From a virus: a stretch of 20,918 nucleotides of DNA. Below are positions 2 through 10,838 of this stretch, in pieces; the first letter of the stretch is position 1, and each line of letters starts with the position of its first letter. The position numbers were made by a program, and so were the translations under genes. The DNA lies in IMG/VR virus record IMGVR_UViG_3300036792_000129, positions 1 to 20,918 of that record; one strand, given 5' to 3'. The notes beneath the pieces are model-generated. The model searched no databases. It had not been told where the DNA came from and saw only the letters and a program-made list of their open reading frames with translations.

Positions 2-2995
2 GCGCGGCACCCCGACCTCGGCGCGCACCAGCACATCCGCGACGCGGCAGCGGCACTGGACCGCCGCCAGCCGGAGGCGGCCAACCGCCACCTGACCGCC
101 GCGATCGGCAACATGACACCGCAGTCGCTGCGCCGCCACGGCCTGCTCACCGACGAGCACCACGACTCGGCGAAGCGCTCGATGGACGCGGTCCACCGGC
201 ACATGCTGCTGGTCAAGGACATCACCGACCTGCAGTCGCGCAACGACTCCCTGCCGCGCAACCAGCTGGACGAGCCGCAGTTCCCGAAGGAGCCGGCCGA
301 CGACAACCTGGACGAAAAGCCGACCTCGAAGATGCCCGCCGAGAAGGCCATGAACGCCCCTGGCAGGATGAACGCCGGGCGGCCGGACCCCAACGTGGCC
401 AAGCCGCAGCAGGTCACCGAGTGGAAGGTCACCAAGCAGATCGCGGCGGCCAACAGCAGCGGCGACCTCACCACCGCCATCGAGCTGGTTGGCCCCAAGG
501 GGTGGAGTCACGGCTGGATCAAGGCCGCCGGGCAGGTGCTCAAGGGCGCGGCAGACGAGAAGCTGCCCGGCGAAGAGGACACCGCCGCGAACTACGACAG
601 GCCTGGCAAGACCCAGCACGGCGGCCTCTACGGGCACATGGCGAGCAGCCACCCAGGGGTGCCGCCGTCTCCCACCGCGCACATGGCTGCCCACGCGTCG
701 GGCGCGGCTGCCCACAGCCACCCGGCCAACGTCTACAAGCGGGCCCCTGGCAACAAGATCATCCCCGGCGGTGCCGAGGACTTCGACATCGCAGCGGCCG
801 GGTTCGCGAACGAGCTGGTCCTGTCTGCGCAGACCGGCACTCTCGCCACGGTGCCGCACCCGTTCGGCAAGCCCGGCGGGCCGGGTCTCTGGAATGTAAA
901 GGGGATGCAGTTGCCGCCCTACGTGCAGAACATCGCGCACGCGCTGCTGCGCACCGGCCGGGCCAAGGACGAGAGCGAGGCCATCGCGATGGCCCGCGCC
1001 GCGACCAAGCGCTGGGAGCACGGCAAGAACACCAGGCCCGAGGTGCGCGCCGCGTCCACGGCCTCGGACGCCGACTGGCGGGCCAAGCAGGCACGCGCTC
1101 ACGCGCACGCGAACGACGGTGCCGCGATCACCCTGGCTTTGCATTTCAACCCGATGGAGAAGCGCGACGCCAAAGGGGAGTGGACGCAGGGTGACATCAA
1201 CAAGGCCGCCGACGACATTTACAAGCTCAGCGACAAGATCATGAACCGCGACAGCAGCACGTTCTACAACGACCAGCCGCTGGGCAAGACGCCGCTGCCG
1301 CGCAGCCGCCGTCTCGACTACCAGGGCAAGGAGACGGACCTGCGGACCGGCCTGGCGATGGCGGCGAGCGACATGAAGAAGGGGAACGCGAACCGGGCGG
1401 CGGAGCACCTGAACAGGGTGGCGGACGCCGTTGACGCGATCGGGAACACCGTCCCCGCTGGCAACATCTCGTCGCACGAGGTCAGCCACCTGCGGGAGAC
1501 AGCCGCCAAGCTGCGCACCGCCCGCGTGCCCGACCCCGAGTACGTCAGCGCGATGGAGAGGGGGCAGGGCAACCTGGTCCGCGCTGCCCGGAGCGGAAGC
1601 GGCATGCGTAATGCCGACAAGTACGGGGCCACCAACTGGAACGCTCAGGGATACGCCAACGACGCAGTCGCGACGGTCCGCCGGGCGATTGAACTCGGGC
1701 ACAGCGCCGCGTACCTGACCGAGCGGCGCGGCCGGGGCGGGCAGTGGTCCAGCGGCGCTGACATCCCGTCCTCGGACAAGGCGCTGGTCAAGAAGAACAG
1801 GGCGGCCGAGGCGGCGGCGGCGCGCGGCACGATGAAGGCCGCTCCCGGCTCGAAGGCGCATGCGCAGGAGCTGCGCGGCCTGGCCAGCGAGATGGACTTG
1901 AACGCCGGGCGCAACTACCTCGCGCTGAAGGACAGCAAGGAGGGGCCGCCCAGCGCCGAGGTGGCCAGTCTGAAGGCCGGGACGGACCGGGAGGTCGCCC
2001 CCCAGTCGGACACGTCGCGGGCCCTGCGGCGCGCGGCGACGATGATCGAGCGGGGGCAGCCGTCCATGGCGCGGCTGCACGCCGACACCATCCGCAGCTC
2101 GGCCCCGTCGGAGGCGAAGCTCAACCCAGATCTGCAGGCGCGGCTGAGCGCGGCGGCCGACAAGCTCGCCGCGCTGCCCCGCAGCCAGGGCATGGCGGCG
2201 ATGCCCCCGGCGACCGCCGACTTCCAGGCCAGAACGGCGGCGGCCCGGCGGTACGCGGCGGCGACCGCGTCGCGCGGGTCGATGACCCTCCAGGCGTCCA
2301 ACGACTGGACCTCCGTCGAACGGCAGATCGCCCTGGCGGTCTCGGCGACACCGCGTGTCATCGCGCTGGTCGGCACGGCGGCGGGCGCGGCGCAGGACTC
2401 CCGCGTCCCGGCGGGGCAGCCAGGCGGCGGCACGTTCGGGCAGGGCAGCGGCGGATCCAGCTCCAGCACCACCAAGGCCACGAGCAGCAGCAGCGGCGCG
2501 AAGACGACCAAGAACAGCCAGTCCAAGGCCCCGGCTAAGGGCCCCGCCAAGGCACCGGCTAAGGCCCCGGCTAAGGCCCCGGCCAGCAGGGCACAGAAGA
2601 AGGCAGCGCTGCTCAAGCAGGCGGCCGGGTACCGCACCCAGGCGGACGCGCTGATCAAGCAGCGGGACGCCCTGCGCGCCGCCCTGGCCAGTGCCAGCGG
2701 CAAGACCACCAGCGGCCAGGCCGGGTCCACGACCACCGCCAAGGCCTCGACCACCAAGAGCACGGCTCCCGCGACCGCCGCGACGACCAAGAGCACCGCG
2801 AGTACGAGCACCACGGCGGCCAAGACCACGGCGGCGAGCACGACGACGGCGGCCAAGAAGACGACCACCACGGCGGCGGGCACGGCCAAGGCCACCGCCG
2901 CGCAGATGACCAGTCAGATCGCCCAGCTCAACACGCAGATCGTGGCGCTGCAGAACCAGTACCGCCAGGCTATTGCCCAGGCCGCGAAGCTGTGA
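2..2995 (+). CDS. Multidomain minor head / internal virion protein, 5' end cut by window edge
   Basis: The reading frame is open from the left edge, so the first ATG at 113 is probably not the true start; at least 997 residues are encoded. Visible modules in order: a helical hairpin module (about 32-115); a His/Pro/Gly-rich stretch (about 620-750); a helix-turn-helix-like segment LPPYVQNIAHALLRTG...AIAMARAATKRW (905-1060); a tag EKRDAKGEWTQG (1157-1192) opening a long helical region with two more hairpin modules (1337-1441 and 2021-2165); a second tag-like site RRGRGGQWSSG (about 1724-1756); a linker SRVPAGQPGGGTFG (2399-2440); then a Lys/Ala/Pro/Thr/Ser-rich tail ending in a coiled-coil-like helix. 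Proteins of this kind lie just after portal genes in actinobacterial phages and are often called minor capsid or MuF-like; I see no clear MuF catalytic signature. A role as an internal head or ejected protein is inferred from position and mosaic structure. The next gene starts 6 bp after its stop. Confidence 0.7.
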   Translation, partial: ARHPDLGAHQHIRDAAAALDRRQPEAANRHLTAAIGNMTPQSLRRHGLLTDEHHDSAKRSMDAVHRHMLLVKDITDLQSRNDSLPRNQLDEPQFPKEPADDNLDEKPTSKMPAEKAMNAPGRMNAGRPDPNVAKPQQVTEWKVTKQIAAANSSGDLTTAIELVGPKGWSHGWIKAAGQVLKGAADEKLPGEEDTAANYDRPGKTQHGGLYGHMASSHPGVPPSPTAHMAAHASGAAAHSHPANVYKRAPGNKIIPGGAEDFDIAAAGFANELVLSAQTGTLATVPHPFGKPGGPGLWNVKGMQLPPYVQNIAHALLRTGRAKDESEAIAMARAATKRWEHGKNTRPEVRAASTASDADWRAKQARAHAHANDGAAITLALHFNPMEKRDAKGEWTQGDINKAADDIYKLSDKIMNRDSSTFYNDQPLGKTPLPRSRRLDYQGKETDLRTGLAMAASDMKKGNANRAAEHLNRVADAVDAIGNTVPAGNISSHEVSHLRETAAKLRTARVPDPEYVSAMERGQGNLVRAARSGSGMRNADKYGATNWNAQGYANDAVATVRRAIELGHSAAYLTERRGRGGQWSSGADIPSSDKALVKKNRAAEAAAARGTMKAAPGSKAHAQELRGLASEMDLNAGRNYLALKDSKEGPPSAEVASLKAGTDREVAPQSDTSRALRRAATMIERGQPSMARLHADTIRSSAPSEAKLNPDLQARLSAAADKLAALPRSQGMAAMPPATADFQARTAAARRYAAATASRGSMTLQASNDWTSVERQIALAVSATPRVIALVGTAAGAAQDSRVPAGQPGGGTFGQGSGGSSSSTTKATSSSSGAKTTKNSQSKAPAKGPAKAPAKAPAKAPASRAQKKAALLKQAAGYRTQADALIKQRDALRAALASASGKTTSGQAGSTTTAKASTTKSTAPATAATTKSTASTSTTAAKTTAASTTTAAKKTTTTAAGTAKATAAQMTSQIAQLNTQIVALQNQYRQAIAQAAKL
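2525..2584 (+). repeat. Five 12-bp tandem units encoding K-A/G-P-A
   Basis: Five in-frame tandem units of the form AAG-GCN-CCG-GCN encode KAPAKGPAKAPAKAPAKAPA. One unit has Gly in place of Ala and synonymous changes distinguish some of the others. The segment sits in the basic low-complexity tail and resembles histone H1-like (AKPA) tails that bind DNA without sequence specificity. Confidence 0.85.
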
Positions 2996-3001
2996 GGTGC
3001 G

Positions 3002-5764
3002 ATGCTGGTATCACAGCAGCTCATAGAGCTGGGCTGGCGGTACAACCCGGCTGAGCTGCGCAACGAGCACGGCGAGTGGACCAAGCTCGGCGAGACGGTT
3101 GCCAGCGCGGGCAAGGACTACGAGCACCCCGACCACACCCGGCTGATTAACCAGCGCGGCAAGCCGCCGGACCCGGCCGACCACCCGTTCTTCAAGGCGC
3201 ACCCGGTCAGCCCGGAAAACATCATGGCGTCCTACGACCGTGCCCCGGCGGCCACCCGCCAGCAGGGCATGCGCTGGTACGCCGACGCGCACGTGATCGC
3301 CAAGGCCATCGCTCACGGCGACGCCGACAAGGGCGCAGGCGTCCTGGCGGCGTACAGCCCGCAGACCGGCTGGCCGTCCAACATGATGAACGCGGCACGG
3401 GCCCTGGAGCTGGGCCGCGCGATCGGCCCCGGCGAGGGCATGATCACCGGCTCGATGCAGGCCAACGCGCAGAAGGCAATGGACGGCAAGGCGGCTGACG
3501 TCGCCAACTCCAGCTCGAAGACCAGGGCCTTCGCCCGGCTGATCCGCAACGGCGGCGACATGCCGGACGAGACGCAGGGCGAAGTGGTGGTCGACCGGCA
3601 CGCGATGTCGGTGGCCATGGGCCAGCGGATCACCAAGAAGGAGAACGACGCCTCACCGATCGGCAACGACCGCTTCTACCAGCACGTGGCCGACCAGTAC
3701 CGCGAGGCGGCCAAGCGGATCTCCGAGCGCGACGGCACCCCGATATCACCGCACCAGCTGCAGGCCATCACCTGGCTGCAGCAGCAGGAGGAGAACGAGA
3801 ACGCGGACGCCGGGGTCGGCGGACCGCGCGAGGTCGGCCGCGCCACCATGATGCGCAACGCCTGGCTGCAGTGGGACGCCAAGGCGAAGACGGAGCAGAT
3901 ACCCACGCACGCGGGCACCACCATGCTGGACGCCGTGCCCAACCTGATCTCTCGCCAGGTGATGGAACTCGCCGTCTGGGAGCACGAGCCACGCGACAGC
4001 CGGGGCCGCTGGACTAAGTTCGGCGGGGTGGGCGAGGCCGTCAAGGTGATGGAGAAGGAGCGCGAGGGGTTCTCGGTTTCTCCCCGCACTGGGGAAGCGC
4101 CGGCCAGCGGGTACATGGTCGCGCTGGACGGGCACACGCACCGCTACCCGGCGGAGATCCTGGACGACCCGGCGAAGCTCCACAAGGCGATCGACGACAT
4201 GCTCATGAGCGAGCGCGAGTCGTTCCAGGGCAAGGACATGTACCTGGGCGGGTGGGTCGAAGACGGTAAACTATGGCTGGATCCGTCCCAGAACGTGCAG
4301 AACCGTGCAACGGCCGAGCAGCTGGGCAGGGCACGGGACCAGGTGGGGATCTTCGATCTCAACACCTTCAACACTATCAACACGGGAGGCAGCGGTGGCG
4401 GACGGATCATCGACCACGCCAACCCCGCAGAAGGTGCACGCGGCGGTCCCCGAGAACTACTGGGACCTGCCCGAGGAGGAGCGCCTGGCGGAGGCGGCGA
4501 AGATCGGCGACGCTATCCGATCGGGATTGCAGCGCAGCTCATCGACCTCGGCTGGGACGGCTGGCGGACCGAGCCGCGCGACCTGAAGGGCCGCTGGACG
4601 CGTCTGCCGGGCGAGGCGGTTGCCCGTGACGTGACCAGCGGCGAGGGGTACCCCGGCCAGTTCAACGACCAGATCCTCAGCCTGTGGCGGCACGAGACCA
4701 GCCCGGTCGCCAGGGGTGCGCTGAACCAGGCGAGCGCCGCCTACCAGGGCGGCGACCACAAGACGGCGGCAGCCCTGCTCAGGCAGGCCGGGCACGGCGA
4801 CCTGGCAGCCAAGATTGACAGCGGTGACACGGCCGACAAGAGCAGCCAGGCGGCTGTCCAGAGTCTCATGCACGCCGCTGCCGACTCCGTGCCCGGCATG
4901 TTCGGGCCGGACGAGCACCTGGACTGGGACGGCAAGCCGCCCACGCTGTTCGCCGACGTTACCCAGCCGAAGGTGCTGGCCGAGGTCGGCTGGAACGGGC
5001 ACGTCTCGATCGCGCAGAGCGTGGCCAGTGCCCTGGCCGAGGCGAAAAACGGCGGCTCGATCAGTGACACCAACGCGTTCACGGTGCCGCTGCACGAGAT
5101 GATCCACGCCGTGATCCCGACGGGCCAGCACCGTGCCAGCAACGGGGACAAGAAGGCGTACCAGAACTACGCCAACGCCCAGATCGAGGAAGGGTTCACC
5201 GAGCTGGGCACCGTCCAGCACGCGGCCGAGTTCTTCGACCAGGCCGGGGTCGGGGACCGGCGGGTGCTCGACCAGGGCAGCCTGGCCAGGCAGCAGCACC
5301 TGGCCGCGATTAACGGCCTGCCGTTCAAGCCCGACCTGACCGCCACCAAGACCATGGACGACCTGGCCGCCGAGGTCAACGACCCGGCGCGGATCAGGAA
5401 CGGAAATGTCTGGGGGCACTACAAGGTGCAGACGGCGCAGGCCTACAACTGGGTGTCGACCATCGCCCAGCTGCATACCGGCAAGAGCGAGAGCAGCCAG
5501 GCCACGCAGGACGAAATCCTCCGGCTGTCCGACGACGTGAACGCCGTGGGCACGGCGGCCAAGCCAAGAGTGATGGCCCAGCATGTCATCGCGGACATGG
5601 GACTGAGCGGGGCTACCAGGGAATCCGTGCTCAGCTCCACGGCGCAGACGATACTAGGTGAGTGGGCGTCGGGCGACGTACAGCAGACGGTGGCGCAGGC
5701 CAGGAAGGCGGCACTCCAGAGAGTGCAGGCGCTTCGCGTAGAGGCAGAAAGGGCGGCAGCATGA
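3002..5764 (+). CDS. Mosaic virion-locus protein: HhH-GPD-like and HExxH metallopeptidase-like modules
   Basis: 920 aa in one uninterrupted frame; the ATG follows a GAGGTG ribosome site. Module 1 opens with a QQLIELGW helix and the tag LRNEHGEWTKLG (residues 18-30), then a helical domain with YSPQTGW (118-124), K173 and VVVDRHAMSVA (about 195-205). These resemble the SaQT and VDTHV motifs of HhH-GPD DNA glycosylases, though no GPD hairpin is obvious. Module 2 starts with tag PRDSRGRWTKFGG (about 330-342) and ends near FDLNTFNTINTGGSGG (about 460). Module 3 starts with AQLIDLGWDGW and tag PRDLKGRWTRLPG (about 525-537) and carries HEMIH (698-702) followed by EEGFTE (729-734), a gluzincin-type zinc site pattern. 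The linker at about 465-505 is Gly/Arg/Pro-rich and appears to be an out-of-frame reading of a different gene. Position suggests an internal or minor head protein. Enzyme activities are inferred from motifs only. Confidence 0.7.
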   Translation: MLVSQQLIELGWRYNPAELRNEHGEWTKLGETVASAGKDYEHPDHTRLINQRGKPPDPADHPFFKAHPVSPENIMASYDRAPAATRQQGMRWYADAHVIAKAIAHGDADKGAGVLAAYSPQTGWPSNMMNAARALELGRAIGPGEGMITGSMQANAQKAMDGKAADVANSSSKTRAFARLIRNGGDMPDETQGEVVVDRHAMSVAMGQRITKKENDASPIGNDRFYQHVADQYREAAKRISERDGTPISPHQLQAITWLQQQEENENADAGVGGPREVGRATMMRNAWLQWDAKAKTEQIPTHAGTTMLDAVPNLISRQVMELAVWEHEPRDSRGRWTKFGGVGEAVKVMEKEREGFSVSPRTGEAPASGYMVALDGHTHRYPAEILDDPAKLHKAIDDMLMSERESFQGKDMYLGGWVEDGKLWLDPSQNVQNRATAEQLGRARDQVGIFDLNTFNTINTGGSGGGRIIDHANPAEGARGGPRELLGPARGGAPGGGGEDRRRYPIGIAAQLIDLGWDGWRTEPRDLKGRWTRLPGEAVARDVTSGEGYPGQFNDQILSLWRHETSPVARGALNQASAAYQGGDHKTAAALLRQAGHGDLAAKIDSGDTADKSSQAAVQSLMHAAADSVPGMFGPDEHLDWDGKPPTLFADVTQPKVLAEVGWNGHVSIAQSVASALAEAKNGGSISDTNAFTVPLHEMIHAVIPTGQHRASNGDKKAYQNYANAQIEEGFTELGTVQHAAEFFDQAGVGDRRVLDQGSLARQQHLAAINGLPFKPDLTATKTMDDLAAEVNDPARIRNGNVWGHYKVQTAQAYNWVSTIAQLHTGKSESSQATQDEILRLSDDVNAVGTAAKPRVMAQHVIADMGLSGATRESVLSSTAQTILGEWASGDVQQTVAQARKAALQRVQALRVEAERAAA
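4384..4397 (+). promoter_or_regulatory. Ribosome binding site and GTG for the embedded small ORF
   Basis: GGGAGG lies five bases before a GTG at 4395. This is as good a start signal as those of most genes here, although it lies inside the 920-aa frame. It supports independent initiation of the embedded reading frame. Confidence 0.45.
4395..4586 (+). CDS. Embedded small ORF in +1 frame, probable former or real small gene
   Basis: 63 aa from a GTG with a GGAGG ribosome site. The middle of the product, around VPENYWDLPEEERLAEAAKI, reads like a natural acidic helical protein. The reading of the same DNA in the long surrounding frame is low-complexity Gly/Arg/Pro. Over codons 4428-4511 all 28 third positions in this frame are G or C, against 10 of 28 in the surrounding frame, matching the codon habit of the rest of the window. 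After about 4515 the signal passes back to the surrounding frame. I do not recognise a family. It could be a true overlapping gene, a relic of a three-gene arrangement later fused, or a sign of a base error in the assembly. Confidence 0.5.
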   Translation: MADGSSTTPTPQKVHAAVPENYWDLPEEERLAEAAKIGDAIRSGLQRSSSTSAGTAGGPSRAT

Positions 5765-7017
5765 GCCTGGAGTACACGGCGGCCGGCGCGCAGGCGCGCT
5801 CGATCATGCGCTGGGCCTGGCAGGACCCGCAGGAGCGGGCGGTCGGCGCGCTGGAGCAGGTTCACGAGCTGGCGGCGGCGGCCACCGACCCGCAGGCCCT
5901 GGCGGAGATCCAGGACGCGGGCACCATGCTGTCCCGTCTCGTGTCCTCGGTCAACCCCCCTGCGGCCAGCGAAAACGCGCTAACGGCCCGTCTTTTGTCC
6001 AGTCAGATGTCCGGCCCGGTGACCATCGGCGAGCAGCTGGACCTGGCCGCCATCCACGGCAAGCACATCCCCGGCACGGCGTACACGTTCCGCCACGGCT
6101 GGATCCCGCTGATCGGCCCGCAGCTCAACGACAAGTACCCGAGCTGGATGGGCGCGCAGATCGAGGCCGACAAGAAGGCCAAGAAGGAAGCGGCCAAGGG
6201 CATCAAGGCGCAGCCCAAGCCGTCACCGCAGGCAGCGGGGCCGAGGCACAAGCCCGTCCCGGTGAAGGCCGGTGAACGTGAGCTGAAGCCCGAGCACCAG
6301 GCGCTGATCGCGAGGAACAAAGAGATCCACGCGAGGGCGGAACGGGCTGCCGCGCGGGCACTGCACCCTGCGACGCCCAGGGTTACGCGGGCGTCCAAAC
6401 TTCCGAGCCACGCCGCAGTCGAAGGCGAGACCCTGAAGGGCATCCACGAACCAGTGCATCAGCCGTCGACCGGCGCGGCGGCGGCGTCGGCCGCCGTATT
6501 CCAGGCAAACCCGCAGGCTACCGCCATCACTGAGAAGCGGGTCGACGCGGTAGCCGCCGCTAGGCAGGCTGCCGCGAACCCGCCTGACTTCAAGCCGGGC
6601 ACGGTGGGGCAGAAGCTTGTCCAGGACGACCCGGCCCTGGCCAGCCTGGCGGCACCCGGTGCCAGCATGGCGGCGCTCAAGGCGTATATCGACGCGCGAG
6701 TGGCGGCCGAAGTGGCGCGGCAAGTCGGCCAGATTACCGACGAGCAGAACAGGAATATCCAGGAAAAGCTGGCCGGAATGCACAAGAGCCAGCAAAGACT
6801 GATCCACTTCATGCGCAAGCAGGCGCAGGAAGGCATCGACAACGATAACAAGGTCGACCGCACCCAGCTGGTCATGTACAACCTATTCAACATGGCCGCC
6901 GTCGGCGTAGCTATAGGCGGGATCGCAGCCGGTGTCACCCCGATTGCGGCTGCCATAGCTGCGGGAATCGTCCCGATCGTCAATATCATCCACGACTACG
7001 TCCGGAGAACCGGCTGA
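5761..7017 (+). CDS. Putative internal virion protein with coiled coil and C-terminal membrane segment
   Basis: 418 aa. The ATG at 5761 overlaps the upstream stop (ATGA) and is preceded by a purine-rich AAAGGGCGG; longer readings in frame begin well inside the previous gene. The N-terminal 90 residues are helical and Ala-rich. A segment GTAYTFRHGWIPLIGP (about 105-120) resembles a motif found in other actinophage head proteins. A Lys/Pro-rich linker follows (about 138-180), then Ala-rich sequence, a coiled-coil-like helix (about 300-365, DARVAAEVARQVGQIT then HKSQQRLIHFMRK), and a hydrophobic Ala/Gly/Ile segment (about 377-410) before a short basic end. A soluble head protein would not need such an end. 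Delivery with the DNA and insertion into the host membrane is one inference; the membrane segment could instead pack against the portal. Family not recognised. Confidence 0.65.
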   Translation: MSLEYTAAGAQARSIMRWAWQDPQERAVGALEQVHELAAAATDPQALAEIQDAGTMLSRLVSSVNPPAASENALTARLLSSQMSGPVTIGEQLDLAAIHGKHIPGTAYTFRHGWIPLIGPQLNDKYPSWMGAQIEADKKAKKEAAKGIKAQPKPSPQAAGPRHKPVPVKAGERELKPEHQALIARNKEIHARAERAAARALHPATPRVTRASKLPSHAAVEGETLKGIHEPVHQPSTGAAAASAAVFQANPQATAITEKRVDAVAAARQAAANPPDFKPGTVGQKLVQDDPALASLAAPGASMAALKAYIDARVAAEVARQVGQITDEQNRNIQEKLAGMHKSQQRLIHFMRKQAQEGIDNDNKVDRTQLVMYNLFNMAAVGVAIGGIAAGVTPIAAAIAAGIVPIVNIIHDYVRRTG

Positions 7018-7148: not shown

Positions 7149-7237
7149 ACACGTTCTCTTATCTGGCAGGCAGGCAGATTTCAGCCGTACCATGACGCAC
7201 AGAAGCAGATTCTCCCTGTAGAAGGGCGTCCTTGAAA

Positions 7238-7945
7238 ATGGCTGATGCACGGTGCCCGCGCTGCGGGTACGCGTCTGATTCTGCCGACTTCGCCATTAGC
7301 GGTGGCACGTCTGGGACGTCTGATTCGTCCTCGGAGGCACTGCGCACCCCGGCGGCGGCACCCAACGGCAGTGGCACCGTCCCGCTGACCGTGCGCGGGG
7401 CAAGCTCGGGCAACCTGGGCCTGGCCAACTACGGCGGCCGGGTCGTCAACCTGGCGCGGCGGATGCCCGTCCAGCGGGCCGACGACATCATGGTGTCGCG
7501 CAGCCCGGACGGGTCGGCGGTCGTCCGCCACCGGCAGGGCGGGGCCGAGGTCGGGCTGATGCGCCGCAACGGCGACGGCACCTGGCAGGCTGCCGTGGAC
7601 GGCAGGGACCTGACCCCGCACCGCCAGCAGCGCAGCGCACTGATCGAGATGTTCGCCCAGTACAACCGCAGCGTCTCAGCCAGCCCCCTCGCCCCGCCCC
7701 CGGCGCAGACGCCGCTGATGGCGCAGTACGGCGTCCCGGCGATCCGCCTGGCGGCGGACGACGACACTGACAACGACGACAGCGCGAGCGCGGACACCAG
7801 CTCCGGCTCCAATGGCCTGACGCCGCGCGGCCAGGGCATCTACAAGAAGCTGGTCGCCAAGGGCGTCAAGCCCGCCGTGGCGATGGCGATGGCCAAGCGG
7901 GCACAGAACACCACGGCCGGGTCCTTCGGCTCGAAGGCGAGCTAG
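7238..7945 (+). CDS. Hypothetical head-region protein with C-terminal helical motif
   Basis: 235 aa from ATG 7238, chosen over an in-frame TTG at 7232 because GAAGGGCG at 7221-7228 is better spaced for the ATG. The N-terminus has one CPRC pair (CPRCGYASDSADF), too little for a full zinc site by itself. A Ser/Gly-rich linker leads to a probable small beta domain (about 60-140) with VGLMRRNGDGTWQAAVDG. Then comes an acidic linker and a C-terminal helical motif LTPRGQGIYKKLVAKGV followed by AVAMAMAKRAQ. That last motif resembles the one in the first gene (QNIAHALLRTG...AIAMARAATKRW) and is common in actinophage proteins near the protease and capsid genes. It lies 3 bp upstream of the protease gene. 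Function unknown; a head assembly role is inferred. Confidence 0.65.
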   Translation: MADARCPRCGYASDSADFAISGGTSGTSDSSSEALRTPAAAPNGSGTVPLTVRGASSGNLGLANYGGRVVNLARRMPVQRADDIMVSRSPDGSAVVRHRQGGAEVGLMRRNGDGTWQAAVDGRDLTPHRQQRSALIEMFAQYNRSVSASPLAPPPAQTPLMAQYGVPAIRLAADDDTDNDDSASADTSSGSNGLTPRGQGIYKKLVAKGVKPAVAMAMAKRAQNTTAGSFGSKAS

Positions 7946-7948
7946 CCC

Positions 7949-9169
7949 ATGCCGGCCGAACTCCGCACCCCCTTCAGCAAGGCCCCGGCCACCCAGGCAG
8001 CCCCTGGCATCTGGCGCAAGAAGGTACTGCCAGTCGGCCAGATCAAGTACCAGGACCGGGTGCTGACGTTCGACCCGGAGTACATCAAGGGCCTGGCCGA
8101 CTCGTTCAACAAGCGGGCCTACGACCAGGTGCCATTCCAGCTGGCCGACGCCAAGAACACGCACACCAACGACCCCGAGCGGTACCGGGGCCAGATTCTC
8201 GGCATGGACGCCCAGCCCGACGGCCTGTGGATCACGGTCAAGCCGACGCCCGAGGGCAACGAGCTGCTGGCCTCCAACCCACACCTCGGCGTCTCCGCGC
8301 GGATCGTGGAGGACTACGCCCGCGCCGACGGCCAGTACTTTCCGGCCGCCATCCAGCACGTCCTCGGCACCCTGGACCCACGCATCACCGGCCTGGGCCC
8401 GTGGGAAGCCGTAGAGATGTCCAACCAACCGGACATGATCATTGATCTGTCGGCGGAGACATTCGCCGGAGAGGAAGGCGGCAGCATCATGCCGGAACTG
8501 AGCGCAAGCCAGCAGGCGAAGCTGGCCAAGCTGCTGGAGCTGGACCCTGACCGGCTCAGCGCCCTGGTGGACGGTCTCGCGGACATCAACGCGGCCGGCG
8601 CTGAAGACCTCGGCTTCGACACGGGCTACGAGGACACCGACACCGACCCAGACGACGACGACATCGTCGCCGCGATCAACGCCATGACAGACGCCGAGTT
8701 CTCGCAGCTGGCGAGCGAGTACGACGTAGAGACGGGGGCGGAGGTGCCGCAGTACGCAGGCGCAGGCGCGTCGCTGTCCAACGACTACGGCCTGAACGAC
8801 ATCGAGCTGGCCAACTACCAGCTGGCGGAGACCCAGCGGCAGATGGCGGTCCTTCAGGGCGAGCACGACAAGCAGGCCTTCGAGAACGAGAAGCGCAAGC
8901 TGATCGGCCTCGGCGTACCGCCGATGATCACCGAGCTGGCCCGGCCGCTGCTCGAAGGCACCGGCCACGTCGTGGAGCTGGCCAACGGGCAGGGCCTGGA
9001 CGCGGGCCTGGTCATGCGCAAGGTGCTGACCGAGTTCGGCAGGATGTCCTCGATGCTGGACCTCGGGGCCGAGATGGGATCGTCGATGGACGAGCCGGAC
9101 ACCTCCCGCCATGCCGAGCAGAGCCGCGACGACATCATGTCCCGCTTCCGCTCGCAGACCGGCATCTGA
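7949..9169 (+). CDS. Prohead (capsid maturation) protease with scaffold-like C-terminal half
   Basis: 406 aa. The first 165 residues match the layout of HK97-type (S78-like) or Mu I-like prohead proteases: a beta strand start KKVLPVGQIKYQDR, a His in NTHTNDPERYRGQI (H72), a GLWITVKPTPEGNELL strand-helix, and Ser in HLGVSARIVEDY (S116), followed by LGTLDPRITGLGPW. H72 and S116 are the likely catalytic pair. From about residue 181 the protein becomes acidic and helical (DTDTDPDDDDIVAAI; a coiled coil at QLAETQRQMAVLQGEH), typical of a scaffold that fills the procapsid and is digested. The whole would assemble and then mature the capsid encoded two genes downstream. An internal start at 8489 may give a separate scaffold protein. 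Family assignment is by motif and gene order. Confidence 0.8.
   Translation: MPAELRTPFSKAPATQAAPGIWRKKVLPVGQIKYQDRVLTFDPEYIKGLADSFNKRAYDQVPFQLADAKNTHTNDPERYRGQILGMDAQPDGLWITVKPTPEGNELLASNPHLGVSARIVEDYARADGQYFPAAIQHVLGTLDPRITGLGPWEAVEMSNQPDMIIDLSAETFAGEEGGSIMPELSASQQAKLAKLLELDPDRLSALVDGLADINAAGAEDLGFDTGYEDTDTDPDDDDIVAAINAMTDAEFSQLASEYDVETGAEVPQYAGAGASLSNDYGLNDIELANYQLAETQRQMAVLQGEHDKQAFENEKRKLIGLGVPPMITELARPLLEGTGHVVELANGQGLDAGLVMRKVLTEFGRMSSMLDLGAEMGSSMDEPDTSRHAEQSRDDIMSRFRSQTGI
8468..8491 (+). promoter_or_regulatory. Internal ribosome binding site and ATG for a nested scaffold product
   Basis: GGAGAGGAAGG at 8468-8478 stands 10 bases before an in-frame ATG at 8489, exactly where the protease domain gives way to the scaffold-like part. 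It is a stronger start signal than that of the full-length gene. Confidence 0.5.
8489..9169 (+). CDS. Possible nested scaffolding protein (internal start)
   Basis: Initiation at the internal ATG would give a 226-aa protein beginning MPELSASQQAKLAKLLEL, identical to the C-terminal part of the protease polyprotein. It is acidic and mostly helical with one coiled-coil-like stretch and a short basic-containing end (SRDDIMSRFRSQTGI), as capsid-binding tails of scaffolds often have. Nested protease/scaffold pairs are established for lambda (C/Nu3) and Mu (I/Z). Here the claim rests on the ribosome site and the domain boundary. Confidence 0.45.
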   Translation: MPELSASQQAKLAKLLELDPDRLSALVDGLADINAAGAEDLGFDTGYEDTDTDPDDDDIVAAINAMTDAEFSQLASEYDVETGAEVPQYAGAGASLSNDYGLNDIELANYQLAETQRQMAVLQGEHDKQAFENEKRKLIGLGVPPMITELARPLLEGTGHVVELANGQGLDAGLVMRKVLTEFGRMSSMLDLGAEMGSSMDEPDTSRHAEQSRDDIMSRFRSQTGI

Positions 9170-9410: not shown

Positions 9411-9905
9411 ATGTCGGCTTCAATCCCGCACTACAAAATGGGGCCTGCCAACTACCAGGTCGCCACTCTCATTTACGGTGGGCAGTTCGTCATGCCGAAC
9501 ACGGCGACGGCGGGCACCACGGACCTCACGGTCAAGCCAGCCACCGCAGCGGCCACCACGGTGCTCGGTGTGGCCGGCAACGACGGCAACGTGCTCACCG
9601 CGCAGACCGGCTCGCCCAACAGCTACGGCCAGCCGCTGATCGACATCTCCGTGCTCACCGACTACATCTCGGTCTACGCAGGCGGATACGACCTCTGGGT
9701 CTGGTACTCGGCCCAGGTCGCGCCGGGGCAGAAGCTGCTGGCGGCAGCCAACGGCACGGTCGGCCCGGCCGGTGCCGGGCCTGCGGCAGACCAGGTCGTC
9801 GGCGTCTGCACACACCCTGGCGGCGTGGCCTCGGCCATGCTGACCCAGGCCATCGGCGGCCAGGGCTCTGCGGTCTACTTCTTCGGCCGCGCTCGGGTCT
9901 TCTAA
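9411..9905 (+). CDS. Capsid decoration (cement)-like protein
   Basis: 164 aa, with AGGAG about ten bases before the ATG. The composition is that of a small beta-barrel protein rich in Gly, Ala, Val and Thr, with VLGVAGNDGN, then VLTDYISVYAGGYDLWVWYSA and APGQKLLAAANGTVGPA. The pattern of a VLGVAG strand followed by a GQ-L-A-A-NG-V turn resembles DUF2190-type or lambda gpD-like decoration proteins, normally encoded directly before the major capsid gene, as here. It would bind the outside of the expanded capsid. The assignment is by pattern and position. Confidence 0.6.
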   Translation: MSASIPHYKMGPANYQVATLIYGGQFVMPNTATAGTTDLTVKPATAAATTVLGVAGNDGNVLTAQTGSPNSYGQPLIDISVLTDYISVYAGGYDLWVWYSAQVAPGQKLLAAANGTVGPAGAGPAADQVVGVCTHPGGVASAMLTQAIGGQGSAVYFFGRARVF

Positions 9906-9926: not shown

Positions 9927-10838
9927 ATGCCAGTCGGCGCACGGGGTTATTCTGACGGCCCCAGAGTAACCGTCAATGAGTTGCTGAAAGACCCGCTGGT
10001 CATTCCCGCACTCATTCTCGACATCACCCAGAACGAGTTCATCATGGACACCGTTCTGCGAATGGGCGGGGCCGCGCCCAGCGGCGCTGTCCGCTACTCG
10101 GAGAGCACGCCGCTCTACGCGGACGACTTCCCCGAGATCAGGTCGGAATTCGGCGAGGTGCCCGTTGTGCCCACCTCGATCGGCAACCCGCGCGTGGTGT
10201 TCAGCCACGAGCGCGCGATGGCGATCATGGTGTCCGACGAGATGCGCCGCCGGCAGACCATCGACCCGGTGACGCGGCAGCTGCTGCAGGTCAAGAACAC
10301 CATGGTCTACAGCTGGAACACGGCGTTCTACAGCGCCGTGGTGGCCAACGCCTCCATCCAGACCCTGGCCGTGGCCAACGCGTGGTCCTCGGCGGCGGCG
10401 ACGATCCGCTCCGACATCGCCCAGGCCGAGTACCTGGTGGAGAACGCCAACGTCGTCTCCCCCAACGGCGTCACCCAGTGGCTCGGCTTCGATGCCGACA
10501 CCCTCATCATCAACCACGGCACCAAGAACACGCTGATCCAGTCCAGCACGTTCGCCGCGCCGTACATCGGTGACATCGCGTCCGAGAACCTGCTGTACAC
10601 GGGCCTGCTGCCGCAGAAGATCATGAACCTGGACGTGCTCGTCTCACGCCAGGTCCCCCCAGGCAACGCCATCGTCATGCAGCGCCAGCGCGCCGGCTTC
10701 TACGCCGACGAGCTGCCGTTCTTCGCGGGCCCGCTGTACCGCGACGAGCCGCGCAAGACCTGGCGTTCCGACACGCAGCGCAGCTCCGCCATCGGCCTTG
10801 ACCAGCCCCTGGCGATCTGCCTGCTCTCTGGAGTCTGA
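9927..10838 (+). CDS. Major capsid protein, HK97-fold type
   Basis: 303 aa, preceded by GAAGG at 9912-9916. An N-terminal segment RVTVNELLKDPLVIPALILD leads into an E-loop-like region (YSESTPLYADDFPEI), a spine-helix region (SHERAMAIMVSDEMRR...TRQLLQVKNTMVYSWN), and a later P-domain-like part with DTLIINHGTKNTLIQS and QVPPGNAIVMQRQRAGFYAD. This N-terminal signature and the closing DELPFFAGPLYRDEPRKTW are typical of actinophage capsid proteins of this length. It follows the protease/scaffold and decoration genes as expected. No long N-terminal delta domain is present, consistent with a scaffold supplied from the neighbouring gene. It would form the icosahedral shell. Confidence 0.8.
   Translation: MPVGARGYSDGPRVTVNELLKDPLVIPALILDITQNEFIMDTVLRMGGAAPSGAVRYSESTPLYADDFPEIRSEFGEVPVVPTSIGNPRVVFSHERAMAIMVSDEMRRRQTIDPVTRQLLQVKNTMVYSWNTAFYSAVVANASIQTLAVANAWSSAAATIRSDIAQAEYLVENANVVSPNGVTQWLGFDADTLIINHGTKNTLIQSSTFAAPYIGDIASENLLYTGLLPQKIMNLDVLVSRQVPPGNAIVMQRQRAGFYADELPFFAGPLYRDEPRKTWRSDTQRSSAIGLDQPLAICLLSGV

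What the first reader, a model, noticed from the sequence alone, without database searches (positions are those of the whole stretch)
1157..4612. A short R-D-x-x-G-R/E-W-T tag recurs at module boundaries of two neighbouring proteins
Six sites share a pattern: EKRDAKGEWTQG (1157), RRGRGGQWSSG (1724), SRVPAGQPGGGTFG (2399, weakest), LRNEHGEWTKLG (3056), PRDSRGRWTKFGG (3989) and PRDLKGRWTRLPG (4574). Most follow a short hydrophobic segment (QQLIELGW, RQVMELAVW, AQLIDLGW, ITLALHF) and precede a new domain. Similar RDxxGRWT and RVPAGxPGGGxF sequences are familiar in phage head-associated proteins, but I know of no described function. A repeated tag used at the start of unrelated cargo domains could be a packaging, scaffold-binding or protease-processing signal.
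Basis: partly seen in the sequence, partly recalled or inferred. Interest (0 to 1): 0.72.

Follow-up and report, generated by a model that had tools for sequence, protein, structure and literature searches.

The report
Repeated cargo tag in phage heads
A short two-part peptide is repeated in front of many unrelated enzyme-like domains that these uncultured, probably actinobacterial, phages encode beside their head genes; it most likely marks those domains for loading into the virus head and for trimming there by the head protease, as short peptides are known to do in phage T4.

Summary
Four exact R[DN]xxG[RE]WT sites occur in the window (0 in 200 shuffles), and a profile built without the window finds five sites at 19.5-47.3 bits against a shuffle maximum of 11.4. 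The sixth site (2399) carries a different second half.

The repeated unit is longer than reported: a short amphipathic helix ending [ILV]-[ED]-L-[AGS], a variable linker, then xR[DGN]xxG[RE]W. About 80 copies occur in 17 of 25 related virus records. All but two weak ones lie upstream of the capsid gene on its strand, and 396 actinobacterial genomes hold no credible copy. Tags precede several unrelated domain families, lie in low-confidence stretches outside folds, and are conserved as protein, not DNA. Several genes start with the tag, with the acidic residue at residues 8-10.

The phage encodes a prohead protease whose nearest solved fold is T4 gp21. The same h[ED]L[AS] motif, with D-L invariant, sits in that protease's linker.

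Best reading: a capsid-cargo signal whose helical half resembles T4's capsid-targeting sequence and may be its protease site. Packaging and cleavage are inferred, not shown.

The parts
1103..1186 (+). tag copy 1: AHANDGAAITLALHFNPMEKRDAKGEW
   Evidence: leave-window-out profile 25.9 bits
1670..1759 (+). tag copy 2: VRRAIELGHSAAYLTERRGRGGQWSSG
   Evidence: leave-window-out profile 19.5 bits
2312..2437 (+). variant: hydrophobic segment VERQIALAV.. followed by RVPAGQPGGGTF (different second half)
   Evidence: regex only; same kind of second half in L016, L018, L025, L067, L074; not matched by the tag profile
2996..3100 (+). tag copy 3 at the very N-terminus of ORF2 (MLVSQQLIELGW..RNEHGEWT); the acidic residue is residue 9
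   Evidence: 46.9 bits; start codon with Shine-Dalgarno-like sequence
3944..4033 (+). tag copy 4: SRQVMELAVWEHEPRDSRGRWT
   Evidence: 47.3 bits
4523..4615 (+). tag copy 5: AAQLIDLGWDGWRTEPRDLKGRWT
   Evidence: 36.5 bits
6004..6111 (+). variant tag: TIGEQLDLAAIHGKHIPGTAYTFRHGWIPL in gene 5758-7017
   Evidence: same variant in 6 other loci
2..2995 (+). ORF1, multi-domain cargo protein, 5' end outside window; homologue follows portal and MuF-like genes in L083
3002..5764 (+). ORF2, cargo polyprotein with three tagged modules
3215..3781 (+). cargo module: DUF7178 (glycosylase-like)
   Evidence: Pfam E 9e-39; homologues annotated glycosylase in cultured phages; structural match to a DNA glycosylase not significant
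4037..4402 (+). cargo module: domain homologous to a part of internal virion protein gp45 of Synechococcus phage Syn5
   Evidence: tblastn E 2e-12, 38% identity
4616..5764 (+). cargo module with HEMIH...EE (zincin-like metallopeptidase motif)
   Evidence: sequence motif read directly; no Pfam match, so inferred
5758..7017 (+). cargo-region gene with variant tag and C-terminal hydrophobic segments
7949..9169 (+). prohead protease domain (residues 1-143) fused to a scaffold-like C-terminal region
   Evidence: AF2; Foldseek best match T4 gp21 5jbl, E 7.5e-5
8435..8458 (+). conserved IIDLSA site in the low-confidence linker after the protease domain (D166-L167 invariant in 49 sequences)
9927..10838 (+). 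major capsid protein (no h[ED]L[AGS] motif)
   Evidence: phrog_1650 E 6e-72

Best explanation
The repeat is a two-part signal on proteins carried inside the phage head. Part 1 is a ~10-residue amphipathic helix ending [AV]-[ILV]-[ED]-[LF]-[AGS]. It acts like the capsid-targeting sequence (CTS) of T4 internal proteins: it brings each cargo domain into the assembling core, and it contains the site at which the phage's own gp21-like prohead protease cuts. Where several tagged domains share one polypeptide, such cutting would release separate effectors. Part 2 (xR[D/G/N]xxG[R/E]W, or one of several alternatives) stays near the new N-terminus of the cargo and probably provides a second contact, with scaffold, capsid wall, portal or DNA. 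The cargo (ADP-ribosyltransferase, kinase-like, zeta-toxin-like, glycosylase-like, 2H phosphoesterase, hydrolase and peptidase-like domains) is then ejected into the host with the DNA. Shown here: the repeat, its confinement to the head cluster, the diversity of following domains, its position outside confidently predicted folds, the predicted protease fold, and the conserved motif in the protease linker. Inferred: packaging, cleavage, ejection and the role of part 2.
For: Copies confined to the head cluster: 78 of 80 in whole virus records are upstream of the capsid gene on its strand; in the one distant case (G023) they still lie next to portal and MuF-like genes, with a ~12 kb insertion before the protease. 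Absent from 396 actinobacterial genomes. Following domains fall into 21 similarity clusters and several unrelated Pfam families, with Alt-like ART among the PHROGs matches. One cargo domain is homologous to part of an annotated internal virion protein of Syn5. Tag plus domain moves as a unit: extra tagged cassettes lie between DUF7178 and the Syn5-like domain in L010 and L036. All three tags in an AF2 model lie in pLDDT<50 stretches. Protease fold nearest T4 gp21, then herpesvirus assemblins. Motif h[ED]L[AGS]: cargo region 7.4x expected, protease-scaffold 13.8x, capsid protein 0 with 8.9 expected. N-terminal tags place the acidic residue at positions 8-10. T4 precedent: the first 10 residues of IPIII suffice, residues 8 and 10 govern processing, gp21 itself has LIE-9 (PMC9026906). 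P1 precedent: 30 N-terminal residues of DarB suffice to target a reporter (PMC9024508). Cultured phages: all 14 records matching FNPxQPRDxxGRW at E<=10 match at the N-terminus of a gene labelled head or capsid maturation protease in most of them; Nocardia phage P3.1 has three neighbouring head-region genes starting with RDxxGR[FW].
Against: No virion proteomics or cleavage data were found for these phages. 28% of copies have D, not E, at the putative P1 position, and Asp there blocks processing in T4 (PMC9026906), so the cleavage rule would differ. Some h[ED]L motifs in the scaffold look structural (hairpin GHVVELANG). In the cluster H and Nocardia phages part 2 occurs without part 1, so the two halves may have separate roles. 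The E-values of the cultured matches are 0.5-4 each; only their consistency is telling. Motif enrichments count related sequences. Eight of 25 virus records lack the RxxxGxW form.
Confidence: 0.55

Rival explanations
1. Docking tag without proteolysis: the helix plus turn binds a scaffold, capsid or portal surface and stays attached; the [ED]L[AS] core is a binding determinant, not a scissile site.
For: Same confinement and position data; D is tolerated as well as E; part 2 alone occurs at N-termini in Nocardia P3.1; crassvirus cargo is bound to the portal in the head (PMC10172136).
Against: A gp21-like protease is encoded beside the cargo and the same motif is invariant in its own linker, where a cargo-docking site has no obvious use.
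Confidence: 0.25
2. The tag is a flexible inter-domain linker or an ancient duplicated N-terminal piece that is kept for folding or solubility only.
For: Low pLDDT, short, found at module borders.
Against: Invariant R and G and 68 of 72 W at defined spacing, occurrence at the very start of genes, and near-absence from tail and host proteins.
Confidence: 0.1
3. The tag is a signal acting after ejection, e.g. host-side targeting or toxin processing in the recipient cell.
For: Cargo families are effector-like; part 2 would remain on the mature protein.
Against: The first-half motif is shared with the protease-scaffold, which acts before ejection; the second half occurs on a head-region gene of cluster H phages.
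Confidence: 0.06
4. The tag is a recombination joint: short similar DNA that lets domain cassettes be exchanged, with no role as protein.
For: Cassettes do appear inserted or shuffled at tags.
Against: Within genomes, identical residues of different copies share codons no more often than codon usage predicts (0.486 against 0.503), so conservation is at the protein level.
Confidence: 0.04

Closest known systems
Phage T4 capsid-targeting sequence of internal proteins IPI-III and Alt (PMC9026906, PMC3012670)
   Same: ~10-residue N-terminal peptide on otherwise unrelated head cargo, including an ART; acidic residue at about position 10; gp21-type protease encoded by the same phage
   Different: Here the signal is also repeated inside polyproteins before each domain, has a second conserved half (RxxxGxW), often has D, and sits in phages of a different lineage; no experimental proof
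P1 DarB N-terminal packaging signal (PMC9024508)
   Same: N-terminal ~30 residues sufficient to direct a large cargo protein to the capsid
   Different: No sequence comparison was made; here up to five tags per protein
Phage-type polyvalent proteins (Iyer et al. 2017, PMC5512222)
   Same: Multi-domain effector-like proteins encoded with MuF/portal genes, with ART, 2H and metallopeptidase-like domains
   Different: No repeated tag before each domain appeared in the passages searched in that paper
phrog_12708 'head maturation protease' / cluster H gp10 and Nocardia P3.1 head-region genes
   Same: N-terminus MxFNPxQPRDxxGRW matches the second half of the tag
   Different: Lack the [ED]L[AS] helix; the 'protease' label of this basic protein rests on annotation only

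Membership tests
T4-like capsid-targeting sequence | Short peptide at the N-terminus of several unrelated proteins encoded with head genes | tested here: met
   Genes starting with the tag in window ORF2, L004, L005, L006, L015, L036, L065; unrelated following domains. That the products are inside heads is inferred
T4-like capsid-targeting sequence | Cleaved by a gp21-type prohead protease at an acidic residue after a short motif | not testable with these tools
   Protease of gp21-like predicted fold is present and an acidic residue is conserved (48 E, 20 D of 72), but P3 is mostly A/V and no cleavage data exist
T4-like capsid-targeting sequence | Sufficient to direct a foreign protein into heads | not testable with these tools
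   needs a reporter assay
T4-like capsid-targeting sequence | Sequence homology of the signal to the T4 CTS | not tested
   only an analogy of position and shape is claimed
Polyvalent proteins (phage type) | Several effector-like domains in one polypeptide | tested here: met
   ORF2 and relatives; families
Polyvalent proteins (phage type) | Encoded with portal/MuF/head genes | tested here: met
   L083 gene order terminase-portal-MuF-cargo by inspection of translations; L093 likewise
gp21/assemblin-type prohead protease (gene 7949-9169) | Protease fold | tested here: met
   Foldseek of the predicted model: E 7.5e-5 to 5jbl, next hits herpesvirus proteases
gp21/assemblin-type prohead protease (gene 7949-9169) | Catalytic Ser/His | tested here: inconclusive
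   S116, H72 and H137 are invariant in 49 sequences; geometry was not checked

The most novel reading that the evidence does not exclude
The phage makes its injected effectors as tagged polyproteins that are packaged and then cut, tag by tag, inside the prohead by a gp21-like protease, so that one gene delivers a set of separate, exchangeable effectors; the RxxxGxW half left on each piece serves as a common retention or ejection handle.
Probability: 0.3. Interest if true: 0.78.

Novelty: new variant of a known kind. Interest (0 to 1): 0.6.

Why it matters
Most cargo of phage heads cannot be recognised from sequence. A tag shared by unrelated injected domains would let virion-delivered effectors be predicted in uncultured phages, and would give a short, swappable address for loading proteins into heads. 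It also offers a direct test of whether phages process effector polyproteins inside the capsid.

Tried and rejected
Profile search over cultured relatives with the same capsid gene (Microcystis Mwe-JY05, Gordonia Ruthy, Streptomyces LazerLemon): no RxxxGxW tag, though they hold h[ED]L[AS] motifs. tblastn of the cargo proteins against phages: no match for ORF1, the third ORF2 module or gene 5758-7017. Pfam and PHROGs with tag peptides alone: only weak hits, of which phrog_12708 proved informative. A tag alignment could not seed a genome scan; a protease scan gave one actinobacterial MAG without the tag. The one bacterial genome hit (G234) is a low-complexity frame. Weak tape-measure matches (RDSKGRFT in L022, RNAKGQFT in L016) lack the helix and are treated as chance or a separate use. 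The DNA recombination-joint idea was rejected by the codon test. DUF7178 as a proven glycosylase: the structural match is not significant. Literature searches for the motif by name found nothing relevant, but motif strings are poorly searchable.

Full report
Setting. The window is a 20,918-base IMG/VR virus fragment. Read on the + strand it holds two long multi-domain proteins (ORF1 2-2995, 5' end missing; ORF2 3002-5764), gene 5758-7017, gene 7232-7945, a protease-scaffold gene 7949-9169, a small head gene 9411-9905, the major capsid protein 9927-10838 (phrog_1650, E 6e-72), connector genes and a long gene from 17212, which by size, position and comparison with the cultured relative is taken as the tape measure. 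In the relative L083, inspection of the translations gives the order terminase, portal, MuF-like protein, ORF1 homologue, a tagged single-domain gene, ORF2 homologue.

The observation. All six peptides exist where reported. Four fit R[DN]xxG[RE]WT exactly, against none in 200 shuffles. A profile trained only on other phages finds five of the six at 19.5-47.3 bits; the best of 40 shuffled windows reaches 11.4. The sixth, at 2399, has a different second half.

What the repeat is. From 80 virus contigs related by capsid protein, iterative profile building gave 72 copies. Column counts show a helix-like stretch ending [A/V]-[I/L/V]-[E 48, D 20 of 72]-[L 59]-[A 36, G 21], a linker of variable length, then E/Q-x-R (72 of 72)-[G/D/N]-x-x-G (72)-[E/R/K]-W (68). 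The variable spacing suggests two recognised elements, not one rigid unit. The first half also precedes other second halves: HIPGTAYTxRHGWIPL, RVPxGxxGGGxF, KPGGPGLx and others. So RDxxGRWT is one of several endings, and the helix with [ED]L[AGS] is the commoner element.

Where it occurs. A scan of 25 virus records (up to 131 kb) gave 80 matches in 17 records. Comparing their positions with the capsid gene as placed, all but two weak ones (12-17 bits, in the presumed tape measure) lie upstream of the capsid gene on its strand. In G023 they lie 19-25 kb away, but still beside portal and MuF-like genes, with an insertion of about 12 kb before the protease. In 396 actinobacterial genomes one weak match was found, in a low-complexity frame. 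These phages are related to one another, so the records are not independent.

What follows the tag. The segments after tags form 21 similarity clusters. Pfam recognises DUF7178, ADP-ribosyltransferase, Arr-like, PI3/4-kinase-like, zeta toxin, alpha/beta hydrolase, 2H phosphoesterase and acetyltransferase families; PHROGs adds an Alt-like ART and a minor head protein family. The second ORF2 module is homologous to part of the gene annotated internal virion protein in cyanophage Syn5 (E 2e-12). Mycobacterium phage Bonray carries relatives of the DUF7178 (judged by eye) and Syn5-like domains in two adjacent genes shortly after its capsid gene; these share a different N-terminal peptide, TAREQFEMLxPW, found nowhere else in 50 kb. 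This looks like the same arrangement with another tag. Tag plus domain behaves as a cassette: in L010 and L036 an extra tagged module lies between two modules that are adjacent in the window. Thirteen of 13 DUF7178 domains with upstream sequence have a tag ending 23-70 residues before them.

Structure. In an AF2 model of ORF2 residues 1-553 (16 sequences, mean pLDDT 71) all three tags fall in or at stretches below 50, with a short helix in the first half in two of them, while the domains between are mostly confident. The tag therefore does not look like part of those folds; low confidence from a shallow alignment is a caveat.

The protease. The gene at 7949 has a confident N-terminal domain whose best solved match is T4 gp21 (E 7.5e-5), followed by herpesvirus capsid proteases. 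After it comes a low-confidence linker holding IIDLSA, whose D and L are invariant in 49 sequences. The h[ED]L[AGS] motif is 7.4 times more frequent than expected in the cargo region and absent from the capsid protein, where 8.9 were expected. Part of the scaffold signal comes from conserved structural sites, and related sequences are counted more than once.

How it most likely works. In T4 the first ten residues of IPIII suffice for targeting, positions 4 and 7 matter for targeting and 8 and 10 for processing, and gp21 itself has a matching LIE site at residue 9 (PMC9026906). P1 DarB needs only 30 N-terminal residues (PMC9024508). In genes that start with the tag here, the acidic residue is at residues 8-10, e.g. 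MLVSQQLIE in ORF2. The simplest reading is a CTS-like signal with a site for the gp21-like protease, repeated before each cargo module, plus a second contact element. Against a close T4 match: P3 is mostly A or V, and D is frequent here whereas it blocks processing in T4.

Not a DNA element. Within genomes, identical residues of different tag copies share codons no more often than codon usage predicts (0.486 against 0.503), so the repeat is kept as protein.

Cultured relatives. A tblastn of an FNPNQPRDSHGRWT-type sequence against 50,697 phage records gave 14 records at E<=10, in Mycobacterium phages of the Konstantine/Predator kind and Nocardia phage P3.1; where the gene is named it is a capsid or head maturation protease, and the match is at its N-terminus. 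P3.1 has three genes starting with RDxxGR[FW] between portal and capsid genes. The individual E-values are weak, and the helix half is missing there.

Conclusion. The finding stands and is enlarged; the packaging idea is the best supported explanation, the processing idea is plausible, and neither is proven. Everything said about packaging, cleavage and ejection is inference from position, motif and precedent.

Noticed in passing
window 4395-4586 (+), frame +1 to ORF2; also L004 ~4330, L010 ~6140, L015 ~6073, L037 ~316: A small overlapping reading frame (..KVHVAVPxxYWDLPEEERLAEAxKIGxAIRxGLQ, 63% mean identity over 35 residues against 49% in the ORF2 frame) is conserved at the end of the Syn5-like module. 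A GTG preceded by GGAGG, built on rare GGA and GGT glycine codons of ORF2, recurs in the relatives read, so an overlapping small gene seems likelier than an assembly error; a programmed +1 frameshift is not excluded.
   Followed up: partly
L091 17432-20630 (Mycobacterium phage Bonray gp105, gp106): Two adjacent genes after the capsid gene share a different N-terminal peptide TAREQFEMLxPW and carry domains related to the window's cargo; only two copies in 50 kb.
   Followed up: partly
window 7949-9169: Prohead protease fused to a scaffold-like region, nearest T4 gp21 in predicted fold; its family's N-terminus also often reads A[VI]ELGNRxWRK, resembling the first half of the tag.
   Followed up: partly
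L096 4501-5271 and L097 4489-5196: Genes annotated capsid maturation protease in cluster H-type and Nocardia P3.1 phages are short, basic and show no obvious protease features; the label may be wrong.
   Followed up: no
L022 ~17105, L016 ~13932, L009 ~17909, L031 ~17362: RDSKGRFT-like peptides inside long genes downstream of the capsid gene, in Gly/Pro/Gln-rich context without the helix.
   Followed up: no
L092 (G023 44000-63000): About 12 kb of unrelated genes on both strands inserted between the cargo genes and the protease gene of one large phage.
   Followed up: no
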